64,000 bases of DNA from Sphingobacterium cellulitidis (GTDB taxonomy: Bacteria > Bacteroidota > Bacteroidia > Sphingobacteriales > Sphingobacteriaceae): positions 163,787 through 227,786 of the forward strand of contig NOUX01000008.1 of assembly GCA_002245855.1 (NCBI GenBank). Reading direction: 5' to 3'. The position numbers were made by a program, and so were the translations under genes. The notes under the pieces are model-generated. The model searched no databases. It saw only the letters and a list, made by a program, of their open reading frames with translations, and was not told the origin of the DNA. Position 1 is the stretch's first letter; each line of letters starts with the position of its first letter. Shown one piece after another: positions 47,820 to 56,845 of the stretch.

Positions 47820-47850
47820 CAAAATTATACTTAGTTATCCTTTTGGATAA
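47820..47850 (-). promoter_or_regulatory. capsid-block promoter box and TTATCC operator (site C)
   Basis: TTATCC-TTTT-GGATAA is a perfect palindrome at 47835-47850. Leftward, TAATTTTG (47827-47820) is a perfect -7 box. The spacing differs from sites A and B (12 nt between operator centre and box instead of 20), so this could be a repressed or differently activated variant. Confidence 0.55.
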
Positions 47851-47887
47851 TAAAATATTTATGTATCTGACTTAATTACAAGATATT

Positions 47888-47917
47888 TTGTAATAACACA
47901 AATTTTCAACATATTTG
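47888..47917 (+). promoter_or_regulatory. promoter of the beta-family gene
   Basis: TTG at 47888-47890, 19 nt, then CATATTTG (one mismatch to TAnnTTTG). The gene starts 21 nt later. It reads against the late genes. Confidence 0.5.
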
Positions 47918-47937
47918 AAAAGACCAATTATTTAAAT

Positions 47938-48957
47938 ATGAAAAAGTATTTCCCCCTCCTGCTCTCAAAAGCAGGGGAATTAAACGCCCTAAAAAATCTT
48001 TCAGATAAAGTAAAAGATAATATTTCACCCATTTTAAATGTTCTTCAAAACAGTGAGGAAAAAATAATTAATTTCTGTTCCGAAAACTGGACTTTCCCTA
48101 ATAATCAAATATTATTTGATTTTACCCACTGTGATTCTATTACAAATTACTCAATATTTGGGTTAATTGACCCATTATTATTAGTTGATGTAAATGTAAT
48201 TCCTGTAGTATCTTCTTATAGTAGTCCTAAAATAATTAATGAAATTTGTAGTTTATTAACTTCTAATAAAGTAAAAAAGTTAGCAATCAGGCTAATTTTT
48301 GAAAATGGTGATTTAAATAAAATTCAAAATATAATTGATGAATTTATCATTAAAACAAATTTAAGTACTAAAAGCATACTTTTACTATTAGACTTCGGGA
48401 TAGTTTCATTGGGAACATATCCTATTTATGCGAATTTTGCAAAAAATAAGATACAGAACCTTTTAAATTCCACTGAGTATCATGAAATAATTATTTCATC
48501 AGGATCATTTCCAAAAAATCTAACTCCATTTGTATCTCAAGATGCTCCCCATCTTCTTAAAAGATATGAATGGTTATTATGGAATGAAATAACCTCAAAC
48601 TTAGGATTAAACATTTCGCTAAAATACTCCGATTACGGCACAAAACATCCAATTTTTGAAGAATCAAATTTTTTGGGAACCTGTAGCATAAAGTATTCGA
48701 CTGAAAATTATTTTATCATCTATAGAGGGGAGAAGTCAAGCAATCATAAGGATGGTAATGGTCAATACATTAATTATGCAAACCTATTAATAAAATCAAA
48801 TAATTATCCAGGTTCTGGCTTCTCATGGGGAGATTATCGCATAAATGAGATAGCTTCTCAAATAAGTAATACAAAAAAGAAGAAACCGGGTAATTCAACA
48901 TCATGGGTTGAGATTAGCCAAAATCACCATATTACACTCATTGAGGGGTTGTTATAA
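47938..48957 (+). CDS. beta family protein
   Basis: This 339-residue protein matches the 'beta protein' family (related to T4 beta) in its C-terminal half: YSDYGTKHPIFEE...SIKYSTENYFIIYRGEKS...GQYINYANLLIKS...GFSWGDYRINEIA...STSWVEISQNHHITLIEGLL. Family members are often paired with sce7726-like proteins, as here, where the two converge and overlap by 20 bp. Both interrupt the late operon between scaffold and portal. I infer a defence or exclusion cassette. Base composition is lower in GC than in the neighbouring capsid genes. Confidence 0.8.
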   Translation: MKKYFPLLLSKAGELNALKNLSDKVKDNISPILNVLQNSEEKIINFCSENWTFPNNQILFDFTHCDSITNYSIFGLIDPLLLVDVNVIPVVSSYSSPKIINEICSLLTSNKVKKLAIRLIFENGDLNKIQNIIDEFIIKTNLSTKSILLLLDFGIVSLGTYPIYANFAKNKIQNLLNSTEYHEIIISSGSFPKNLTPFVSQDAPHLLKRYEWLLWNEITSNLGLNISLKYSDYGTKHPIFEESNFLGTCSIKYSTENYFIIYRGEKSSNHKDGNGQYINYANLLIKSNNYPGSGFSWGDYRINEIASQISNTKKKKPGNSTSWVEISQNHHITLIEGLL

Positions 48958-49519
48958 TTTCATACCTCCACTTTGACCTTAATTTAATACTCTCTCTTAC
49001 ATAATCAGAGAGAGTATCTATATTAAGGTTATTAGATATAATTTCACAAAGTATCCAATTTCTATCTTTTTTATTGAAAGGAATATTATAAATATTTAAG
49101 CAATCAATCAACTCTTCTCTCCAAAGTAATTTTGCTAAATAAAATCCTTCTTTTAATTTATTTTTCTTTGGGGCCCGGATCCGCTTTATTGTACATTTAT
49201 TAGATTCTTCTTCACATAAATATATTCCAATCCAATTAGGAATTGTTGATTGTATCTTTTTAATATACTTTTCTTCTGTAATTATTGATAAGTAATCAAA
49301 AATTTTTGAGTATGCATCCACTTGAGATTGGAGCCTATTTAATGTATCTGAAGCACTTTTAATTTCATAACCATACATTGAACCATTTAAAACTGCAATA
49401 TCAATGCGAGCTTTCGCAACTGATAAATCTAATTCGTCAATTACCTTACAGTTAGAATCATTTAAGTATTTTTTTAATTCAATATTTTTAAATACTTGTC
49501 GAATTTCTGGATCTTTCAT
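48938..49519 (-). CDS. sce7726 family protein, PD-(D/E)XK-like
   Basis: This 193-residue protein has the nuclease-like core VAKARIDIAVLNGSMYGYEIKSASDTLNRL, with Asp40, Glu52 and Lys54 in the D...ExK arrangement, and QVDAYSKIFDYLSIIT following, as in sce7726 proteins. It is convergent with the beta-family gene and has its own consensus promoter. Known relatives occur in paired genes suspected of anti-phage function; experimental proof is not known to me. Confidence 0.8.
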   Translation of the reverse strand: MKDPEIRQVFKNIELKKYLNDSNCKVIDELDLSVAKARIDIAVLNGSMYGYEIKSASDTLNRLQSQVDAYSKIFDYLSIITEEKYIKKIQSTIPNWIGIYLCEEESNKCTIKRIRAPKKNKLKEGFYLAKLLWREELIDCLNIYNIPFNKKDRNWILCEIISNNLNIDTLSDYVRESIKLRSKWRYEIITTPQ

Positions 49520-49533
49520 ATTATTTTGAGGGC

Positions 49534-55448: not shown

Positions 55449-56299
55449 TATTTTATCCCGTAATGTTGTTTTCGATGTTCCGCAAATGTCGTTGTATCCC
55501 TCCAATCGTTGTTTTTCCACATCCACTTGCCAATTCTTTCTTCATCGAACTCACCAATCCTTACAGGTGGATTATCATCAATTATTTCTTTGGAAATACT
55601 TTTGTTGTTGTTAAATTGATATCTTATCCACTTAAAGCAGTAAGATCGAGCATCGTCATTTTCCATTAATTCCTTTCCTTCACCAATCATTTGAATAACG
55701 AACTCATCTATCATAGCTCTTGACTTTTCTAAGCTTCCTGTTATTTTCATCGACAGATTATCCAACCATTTTGAAGGTTGTTTAAATTCTTCTCCCAAAT
55801 CCTCAATTTTTCTTTTAATATTTTCTTCTGTTATTGGTTTATTAAGGTTATTGGTTATTGGTTTATTTATACTATCCGTGCTTTGTTCCGTGCTTTGTTC
55901 CGTGCTTTGTTCCGTGCCTTTGTAAATTTTGGCAGAGCGATCGATTGTTTTCGCAAGTGTATTGTCTAATGCATTATACTGTGCTTTATCAAATTTTGAT
56001 AAAGCAATTACACATGCAGTCCACTGGTTTTTACTTTCTTGAATAACCTTTAAGAACCCCCAATCTACCAAATTATCAAAAGTTCTTTTATATGTGTTAT
56101 ATGATTTAATACCTATCGCAGCCATTGCCTGTGAAGAAGGAGAAGCGAATTTATTAGGCCATCCTAATCGGTTGCTTAGCTCAATAAACCACATGAGCAA
56201 TGCAGTGTGATTGGGGTTCACAAGGTCATTATTTTCAAATGCAAAATCAAACCATGATCGAGACAGAGAATATCCGTTAATCTGTTGTTTATCTTTCAT
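55448..56299 (-). CDS. replication initiator or helicase loader
   Basis: The start at 56299 (MKDKQQINGYSLSRSWFDFAF) avoids a long overlap with the upstream gene. The 283-residue protein has an N-terminal winged-helix region (LLMWFIELSNRLGWPNKFASPSSQAMAAIGIKSYNTYKRTFDNLVDWGFLKV) common to Bacteroidota phage replication proteins, a low-complexity linker with three TEQS repeats, and a C-terminal DnaD-like helical part. Its stop overlaps the DnaB start, fitting a loader or initiator role. Confidence 0.8.
   Translation of the reverse strand: MKDKQQINGYSLSRSWFDFAFENNDLVNPNHTALLMWFIELSNRLGWPNKFASPSSQAMAAIGIKSYNTYKRTFDNLVDWGFLKVIQESKNQWTACVIALSKFDKAQYNALDNTLAKTIDRSAKIYKGTEQSTEQSTEQSTDSINKPITNNLNKPITEENIKRKIEDLGEEFKQPSKWLDNLSMKITGSLEKSRAMIDEFVIQMIGEGKELMENDDARSYCFKWIRYQFNNNKSISKEIIDDNPPVRIGEFDEERIGKWMWKNNDWRDTTTFAEHRKQHYGIK
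55874..55918. repeat. 12-bp tandem repeat in the replication gene
   Basis: CCGTGCTTTGTT is repeated three times plus a partial copy, encoding the TEQS repeats in the linker. The reading frame is kept since the unit is a multiple of three. Replication slippage could change copy number. Confidence 0.8.
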
Positions 56300-56690
56300 A
56301 TCTATCTTCAAATTCATTCCCATTAAAAAAATATTTCTCAATAAAATCTCCAAAGAATACAAACTCGAAATCTGGAAATTCTCCAATTACAGGACAGCTA
56401 ATTTCGATTTTATCATAATTTTGGATAATATAAAAGCTAAAATGAGTAGCTTCCCCAAACATCGATTCAAAGCAAGACCTATAATAATCTATGGCGATCA
56501 TGTCTTCTAAGGAAATATCTGAATCTGGGAAAATACATAGGCTAATGTAAATTTCTCCAATCCCGTAATTCCCAACGTCTACCAGTATCTCTGGATAGTT
56601 ATGATGTCGAAAGAAAAAAGATTTATTTCGGGAATACTCATATAAATAACCTGATTCAAAAACTTTGTTTATTAACTTTTCTTTATCCAT
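56289..56690 (-). CDS. uncharacterised protein of the replication operon
   Basis: This 133-residue acidic protein is aromatic-rich (FFFRHHNYPEILVD, FPDFEFVFFGDFIEKYFF). It is the first gene after promoter B and a hairpin. It overlaps the next gene by 11 bp. I do not recognise a family. Confidence 0.6.
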   Translation of the reverse strand: MDKEKLINKVFESGYLYEYSRNKSFFFRHHNYPEILVDVGNYGIGEIYISLCIFPDSDISLEDMIAIDYYRSCFESMFGEATHFSFYIIQNYDKIEISCPVIGEFPDFEFVFFGDFIEKYFFNGNEFEDRYER

Positions 56691-56706
56691 AATCTATGGA
56701 ATTAAA

Positions 56707-56756
56707 AAGCCCTTACTGGCTTCACGGCATCCACTCCGATCCGCCAATAAGGGCTT
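56707..56756 (-). terminator. hairpin terminator/attenuator in the replication leader
   Basis: AAGCCCTTA-C-TGGC pairs with GCCA-A-TAAGGGCTT, a 13-bp stem with one mismatch and a 22-nt loop; leftward it ends in TTTTTAATT. It lies between promoter B and the 56289-56690 gene, so transcripts from B must read through it. Confidence 0.7.
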
Positions 56757-56806
56757 AAAATTTCTTTATGATTGTCTATGGTGGATGATCAATCGTTTTC
56801 ACAAAT

Positions 56807-56845
56807 CAAAGCTATAAACTTATTTTTTCTTATCCAAATGGATAA
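56807..56845 (-). promoter_or_regulatory. promoter B with TTATCC-ATTT-GGATAA operator
   Basis: Leftward: TTTG (56838-56835), 20 nt, TAGCTTTG (56814-56807). The palindrome TTATCC-N4-GGATAA is at 56830-56845. It is a near-exact copy of promoter A and drives the replication genes. Confidence 0.8.

What the first reader, a model, noticed from the sequence alone, without database searches (positions are those of the whole stretch)
47820..56845. A shared TTATCC-N4-GGATAA operator-promoter links the phage replication, packaging, capsid and tRNA blocks
Two almost identical 41-bp promoters lie at 53926-53964 and 56807-56845 (leftward). Each has TTTG, 20 nt, TAGCTTTG, with the -33 inside a perfect palindrome TTATCC-ATTT-GGATAA. 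The same palindrome with a TTTT centre is at 47835-47850 before the capsid block. The right half (TTTGGATAAG with a 20-nt spacer and TAAGTTTG) is at 34520-34551 before the tRNA array. Each stands at the head of a functional block. This suggests a single regulator, perhaps the LuxR-type early protein at 7358 or the XRE protein at 5723.
Basis: partly seen in the sequence, partly recalled or inferred. Interest (0 to 1): 0.8.

Follow-up and report, generated by a model that had tools for sequence, protein, structure and literature searches.

The report
Scattered operators of a prophage repressor
A dormant virus in a Sphingobacterium genome carries the same short mirror-image DNA site on the start signals of several of its gene blocks, and comparison with related viruses points to one small DNA-binding protein, made next to its main repressor, as the switch that probably keeps those blocks silent.

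Summary
Two 39-bp promoters, alike at 38 bases, carry TTATCC-ATTT-GGATAA centred on the -33 box. A third perfect copy precedes the capsid operon; a weaker one precedes the tRNA array. Only three other perfect copies lie in the 4.6-Mb host assembly. Related prophages keep sites at the same places, but the half-site changes with the phage (nCTTATCC, nGTAATCC or nCTTAACC), mostly in both arms and at several unlinked sites together. Of 27 open-frame families shared by eight such phages, only the 106-aa XRE protein (5723-6043) sorts exactly by operator class. LuxR (7358) and the CI-like protein (6478) do not; CI follows a different palindrome. Among LuxR-bearing loci long enough to judge, strict palindromic promoters occur in 13 of 15 with this XRE and 0 of 31 without (related phages, so not independent). 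Best reading: XRE, encoded just behind cI, represses a scattered late, replication, tRNA and capsid regulon in lysogeny. Binding is supported by covariation only; repression rather than activation is inferred; nothing was tested at the bench. The LuxR candidate is not supported. A new variant of a known kind (compare SPbeta MrpR/SPBRE, mycobacteriophage stoperators).

The parts
53926..53964 (-). Late promoter A: operator TTATCC-ATTT-GGATAA (53949-53964) centred on the -33 TTTG, 20-nt spacer, -7 TAGCTTTG; heads 53546-terS-terL-portal
   Evidence: a site at this place in 12 phages (11, L188)
56807..56845 (-). Replication promoter B: operator 56830-56845, -33 TTTG, 20-nt spacer, -7 TAGCTTTG; heads 56289-55448-dnaB
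47835..47850 (-). Operator TTATCC-AAAA-GGATAA upstream of the capsid/scaffold gene (47020-47751); nearer a -7-like box, not on a -33 TTTG in this direction
   Evidence: a site at this place in 8 of 8 core phages
34513..34551 (+). tRNA-array promoter: imperfect operator TAATCT-ATTT-GGATAA, TTTG-N20-TAAGTTTG
13385..13400 (+). Weak operator-like site TTATCT-ATTT-GTATAA ending 15 nt before the ATG of gene 13416; tentative, no -7 box assigned
   Evidence: class-matched sites near 13416/13696-like genes in G303 and G302, without a -7 box at the expected place
5723..6043 (-). XRE-family DNA-binding protein, 106 aa; predicted binder of the operators
   Evidence: Pfam HTH_19 5.1e-11 and HTH_3 1.1e-8; covariation; model
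6036..6464 (-). 142-aa protein of unknown function between cI and xre; joined to XRE in one ORF in G301
6478..7233 (-). CI-like repressor; first gene of the leftward cI-6036-xre set
   Evidence: PHROG 8 at 5.3e-5, only sub-threshold HTH matches in Pfam; a palindrome type in the cI-luxR gap varies with its recognition region
7358..7969 (+). LuxR/GerE-type early protein; rejected as the binder
   Evidence: Pfam GerE, PHROG 10300
53546..53920 (-). First gene behind promoter A, 124 aa, unknown function
52794..53549 (-). Terminase small subunit
51286..52797 (-). Terminase large subunit
53973..55526 (-). DnaB-like replicative helicase, downstream of promoter B

Best explanation
The palindromes are operators of the prophage's small XRE protein (5723-6043). 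Its gene lies directly behind the cI-like gene on the same strand and is probably made from the same lysogenic transcript (inferred from gene order). A dimer is expected to bind the two half-sites, about one helical turn apart. At the late, replication and tRNA promoters this would cover the -33 box of Bacteroidota-type promoters and shut out RNA polymerase during lysogeny; at the capsid site it would sit nearer a -7-like box. CI separately controls the early operon in the cI-luxR gap (inferred). Loss of XRE after induction, perhaps because LuxR in the Cro-like position turns off the cI-xre transcript (speculative), would release the scattered regulon. Shown: the sites, their conservation of place, and their covariation with XRE and not with the other shared families. 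Inferred: direct binding, dimer, repression, timing.
For: (1) Of 27 open-frame families present in all 8 core phages, only XRE has every within-class pair closer than every between-class pair (margin +0.18; next terL -0.03; CI -0.24, 9th; LuxR -0.44). (2) Class letters change at late, tRNA and capsid sites alike: nCTTATCC, nGTAATCC, nCTTAACC (23 sites, 46 arms; 3 arms carry another class's letter at the class position). (3) Phages fetched later fit: L244, L190, L192, L194 have class-2 operators and the class-2 helix, L188 class 1 with the class-1 helix, L257 a new operator with a divergent XRE. L192 has an unrelated CI but class-2 XRE and operator. (4) Strict palindromic promoter in 13 of 15 loci with XRE and 0 of 31 without, P 1e-9, not corrected for kinship. 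(5) Arms-only scan: 49 own-class sites (8.9 per 100 kb) against 13 with other classes' arms (1.2 per 100 kb). (6) Internal control: in the cI-luxR gap 6 of 6 loci whose CI reads RNTVYQYF have TGTAAT-N7-ATTACA and 0 of 6 with RQ(T/N)VYQYF, across XRE classes. (7) For repression: the late promoter has both boxes intact in 12 of 12 XRE loci where a 53546- or terS-like gene marks it, and the centre reads xTTT in 15 of 15 late and tRNA sites but 0 of 8 capsid sites in the gene's sense. (8) The model resembles XRE-type DNA-binding domains such as P22 c2 with operator (TMt 0.72), BldD and ImmR, with modest statistics (no E of 0.001 or less).
Against: No binding, expression or start-site data. The phages are related, so counts are not independent; the core set has only two phages each in classes 2 and 3. 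L263 has an XRE relative but no such promoter, and G310's best strict spacer-20 site has 4 of 6 pairs (its tRNA site has 6 of 6 with a relaxed -7 box). Loci L248, L252, L255 and L279 have weak XRE matches (E 3e-5 to 1.3e-6) that I counted as without XRE. With a relaxed -7 box one XRE-negative locus, L261, has a 5-of-6 palindrome with unrelated arms. The window's XRE differs from those of G305-G307 around helix 3 although their operators match. On the opposite strand two capsid sites (window, G307) do read xTTT, which weakens point 7; three of the 15 sites were placed through the promoter pattern. An HTH protein over the -35 box can activate: GIL01 gp6 does (PMC6182141). G308 and G309 end before the place of xre and say nothing on XRE; G309 has a variant palindrome at its late promoter. 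No XRE operator with up to 2 mismatches was found near its own gene or cI.
Confidence: 0.72

Rival explanations
1. XRE binds the sites but activates the late and replication promoters, class II style, during lytic growth, alone or with LuxR.
For: GIL01 gp6, a truncated LexA homologue, activates late promoter P3 by binding over the -35 box (PMC6182141, passages). XRE and LuxR are both needed at a phage promoter in Aeromonas phages (PMC10432266, passages). LuxR accompanies XRE in the loci studied, though XRE was sought near LuxR only.
Against: xre lies behind cI in the lysogenic direction. The late promoters keep both consensus boxes, and TTTG is kept at the promoter-type sites. LuxR shows no class covariation.
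Confidence: 0.17
2. The LuxR-type early protein at 7358 is the regulator, as late activator.
For: Early position; GerE domain; present in every core phage.
Against: Nearly the same recognition region with different operators (G303, G301), and the close pair G310 and G302 have different operators. 0 of 31 LuxR-positive loci without XRE have strict palindromic promoters.
Confidence: 0.04
3. CI is the single repressor of early and scattered sites.
For: Single-repressor scattered regulons exist (SPbeta MrpR; mycobacteriophage repressors).
Against: CI type goes with a different palindrome in the cI-luxR gap, across XRE classes; L192 has an unrelated CI with class-2 operators; CI ranks 9th of 27 families.
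Confidence: 0.03
4. The sites are a recent duplication of one promoter with no regulator.
For: The two window promoters differ at one base of 39.
Against: Sites at the same places in diverged phages, changing by class.
Confidence: 0.02

Closest known systems
SPbeta MrpR (YopR) and SPBRE sites (PMC10516654, passages read)
   Same: A prophage repressor whose sites lie in many promoter regions across the prophage; the repeated element was seen in silico long before its protein was found
   Different: MrpR is related to tyrosine recombinases and is called the master repressor; here the candidate is a small XRE beside a separate CI-like repressor, on Bacteroidota-type promoters
Cluster A mycobacteriophage repressor and stoperators (PMC6550527 passages; PMC9283540 abstract)
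   Same: Dispersed sites whose motif differs between related phages with different repressors
   Different: Stoperators are asymmetric and also stop elongation; these are palindromes, most of them on promoters
GIL01 late promoter P3 with gp6 and LexA-gp7 (PMC6182141, passages)
   Same: Small HTH phage protein on a site over the -35 region of a late promoter
   Different: gp6 activates; here repression is inferred
P22 c2 / 434-type XRE repressors (structure hits; 434 contacts recalled)
   Same: HTH fold; short palindrome with half-sites about one turn apart
   Different: Operators dispersed over unlinked late, replication and tRNA promoters; none found at the cI region
sigmaABfr promoter of Bacteroidota (TTTG about -33, TAnnTTTG about -7; PMC7366714, passages)
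   Same: Both boxes present
   Different: Palindromic operator laid over the -33 box with a 20-nt spacer; the same paper notes that the -33 box was not found in Flavobacterium johnsoniae

Membership tests
XRE / HTH_3 regulators | HTH domain above curated cut-off | tested here: met
   HTH_19 42.8 bits (cut-off 30.2), HTH_3 35.4 (23); AF2 model mean pLDDT 77.6, helical
XRE / HTH_3 regulators | Direct binding of the palindrome | not testable with these tools
   Only covariation
CI/LexA-like SOS-cleavable repressor | C-terminal peptidase-like domain in the XRE protein | tested here: not met
   106 aa; only HTH families matched in Pfam
LuxR/GerE as operator binder | Recognition region varies with operator class | tested here: not met
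Scattered prophage repressor regulon (SPBRE-like) | Same site at several unlinked phage promoters, rare in host | tested here: met
[quoted passage not shown]
   A separate CI with its own palindrome type is present; roles untested
Stoperators | Asymmetric sites oriented with transcription | tested here: not met
   Symmetric or near-symmetric palindromes, most at promoters
sigmaABfr-type promoter | TTTG-N19-21-TAnnTTTG | tested here: met
   53957, 56838, 34520; the capsid site does not meet it

The most novel reading that the evidence does not exclude
These phages carry two separable immunity systems: CI for the early operon and a small XRE for a dispersed late, replication, tRNA and capsid regulon. 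The two specificities reassort independently, so superinfection immunity would be two-dimensional, and late genes would be gated separately from DNA-damage induction because the XRE has no recognisable cleavable domain.
Probability: 0.4. Interest if true: 0.65.

Novelty: new variant of a known kind. Interest (0 to 1): 0.5.

Why it matters
A search for Sphingobacterium + prophage + repressor + operator in the held papers gave 0; the listed titles and abstract starts of three broader searches (7 of 8 papers, 12 of 113, 4 of 4) showed no such operator set, which is far from a full literature check. A predicted repressor-operator code with four specificities gives an immediate binding test, a way to type immunity groups, and candidate regulated promoters for Bacteroidota. 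It also poses an evolutionary question: how several unlinked operators follow one protein while other genes have other histories.

Tried and rejected
LuxR and CI as binders: rejected by covariation. G308 and G309 as negatives: written so in my notes, then dropped because their contigs end before the place of xre. The first presence/absence count (13 of 15 against 0 of 39) was redone after dropping 8 loci too short to judge, L184, L196, L198, L199, L259, L260, L271 and L281 (13 of 15 against 0 of 31); G304 (same phage), L193 and L189 were left out of both. The list of XRE-bearing loci was set by hand (E up to 5.5e-12). For the ranking I trimmed the fused G301 ORF to its XRE part; the 27 families come from open-frame clustering and include some overlapping, probably non-coding frames. 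The window match at 46879 is inside a gene and similar matches recur in other classes at the terminase-side loci, so it was read as coding. Rfam over 34400-48100 gave only tRNA at or above gathering score; the leader behind the capsid site was aligned once and not pursued. Sequence search of solved structures gave one hit at E up to 0.01, a designed protein. The phages collection holds only distant XRE matches (21 records, none covering 80 percent) and terminase relatives under 60 percent identity (13 records at E up to 1e-20). phiC31 inverted-repeat operators and P1 were recalled, not read (one search gave no paper on them). An S24-like motif in the CI protein and the 434 contact positions are recalled, not from a call. 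The prophage ends (att sites) were not mapped.
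Full report
What is there. The window lies in a genome of the same genus as Sphingobacterium genomes that carry close relatives of its terminase. It holds a prophage from an integrase at 4562 to about 57433; its ends were not mapped. On the minus strand 53926-53964 and 56807-56845 are 39-bp promoters differing at one base, each with TTTG-N20-TAGCTTTG and a perfect TTATCC-ATTT-GGATAA centred on TTTG. A third perfect palindrome is at 47835 and an imperfect one at 34513. 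Shuffles give 0.02 exact copies per window; the host has three more copies, none with a strict promoter within 60 bp. Promoter A heads 53546-terS-terL-portal; B heads 56289-55448-dnaB; 34513 heads the tRNA array; 47835 precedes the capsid/scaffold gene at 47020.

Relatives. Searches with the terminase, the 53546 protein, LuxR and CI gave related prophages. In the eight core phages (window, G301, G302, G303, G305, G306, G307, G310; G304 is the window phage itself) a site lies before the 53546-terS-terL genes in 8 of 8, before the capsid gene in 8 of 8, and in a tRNA-array position in 7 of 8 (no G301 site was assigned). In G302 my search found no dnaB homologue next to it. ARAGORN found tRNA genes downstream in six of these seven, all but G305. 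In one search, over the 59 sequences held (duplicates G304 and L193 and host flanks included), relaxed promoter matches with at least 5 of 6 palindrome pairs at -33 are 34 of 326 at spacer 20, 3 of 341 at 19 and 5 of 258 at 21; 6-of-6 palindromes are 20, 0 and 0. Two of the 34 (G307 31635, L261 13872) have unrelated arms.

Who binds. Half-site consensus is nCTTATCC in the window, G305, G306 and G307; nGTAATCC in G303 and G310; nCTTAACC in G301 and G302, with 3 of 46 arms departing at the class position. XRE sequences fall in the same three groups. LuxR instead pairs G310 with G302 and G303 with G301, and the recognition region of CI pairs G306 with G310 and G302. Among 27 open-frame families in all eight phages only XRE has every within-class pair closer than every between-class pair. 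Loci fetched afterwards agreed (L244, L190, L192, L194, L188; L257 as a fourth class), with L263 the exception. Across LuxR-bearing loci long enough to judge, 13 of 15 with XRE and 0 of 31 without have a strict spacer-20 palindromic promoter. Kinship inflates such counts; the crossing of XRE class with the LuxR and CI groupings is the stronger argument.

Internal control. The cI-luxR gap carries a different palindrome. Of 13 loci examined, six have the RNTVYQYF form of CI (G306, G310, G302, L184, L188, L257) and all six have TGTAAT-N7-ATTACA there; six have RQTVYQYF or RQNVYQYF (window, G305, G307, G303, G301, L244) and none has it; L192 has an unrelated CI. The two CI forms cross the XRE classes. 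So each repressor goes with its own site type, which supports the method and separates the two systems.

Repressor or activator. xre is the third gene of the leftward cI-6036-xre set; xre and 6036 overlap by 8 bp. The late promoter keeps both boxes in 12 of 12 XRE loci where a 53546- or terS-like gene marks it; the L192 and L194 loci end in or at dnaB, and in L263 no such gene was recognised. The centre reads xTTT in 15 of 15 late and tRNA sites but 0 of 8 capsid sites in the gene's sense; three of the 15 were placed through the promoter pattern (window tRNA, G306 and G310 late), and on the other strand two capsid sites do read xTTT. This suggests that polymerase reads TTTG itself and that a bound dimer would block it. 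GIL01 gp6 (PMC6182141) and the Aeromonas XRE-LuxR pair (PMC10432266) show that activation by such proteins exists, so the sign is inferred.

Structure. The XRE model (mean pLDDT 77.6, highest in residues 11-70) matches XRE-type DNA-binding domains, among them P22 c2 bound to operator, with modest scores. The class-specific residues lie just before and at the start of the predicted third helix.

Limits. No experiment; four operator classes; some loci trimmed; G308 and G309 uninformative on XRE. The weak window sites at 34513 and 13385 score 11.0 and 10.9 with a matrix built without window sites. The best scores elsewhere are 7.8 or less in five LuxR loci without XRE, but 10.8 in G308 (inside a 107-aa frame) and 12.7 at the late promoter of G309.

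Noticed in passing
tRNA promoters of G302, G303, G305-G307 and capsid sites of G302, G303, G305-G307, G310: A second palindrome (TGTAAT/TGTAAA-N7-ATTACA or TGCAAA-N7-TTTGCA) has its centre 26.5-27.5 bp upstream of the XRE-site centre at the tRNA promoter (5 of 6 phages looked at) and 28.5-38.5 bp upstream at the capsid site (6 of 6). Its form does not follow the CI type, so its binder is unknown.
   Followed up: partly
window 47752-47815 minus strand and relatives: Conserved leader behind the capsid site (ACGAGG..GCACGAAATAGCTACTCGGA in several phages); no Rfam match in the window; role unknown.
   Followed up: partly
window 34654-34770 and 34980-35063: tRNA-like genes; ARAGORN gives tRNA-??? 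for the second and misses the first, Rfam tRNA scores 29.1 and 49.3 bits; they look to have odd anticodon arms.
   Followed up: no
window 47938-48957 (+) and 48938-49519 (-): Beta_protein (PF14350) and a neighbour sit between the portal and capsid genes; G307 has a 341-aa plus-strand ORF with no match to the listed window proteins near the same place.
   Followed up: no
G301 (L160:11971-12618): The 6036-like protein and XRE are read as one 215-aa ORF, hinting that they work together.
   Followed up: no
window 7358-16012 against 57433-53546: Early and late blocks face opposite ways in the window but LuxR and terminase lie on one strand in the other core phages.
   Followed up: no
late and capsid operators of G303 and G301: These phages have close LuxR and CI yet their dispersed operators differ by class; how unlinked operators change together is unexplained.
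   Followed up: partly
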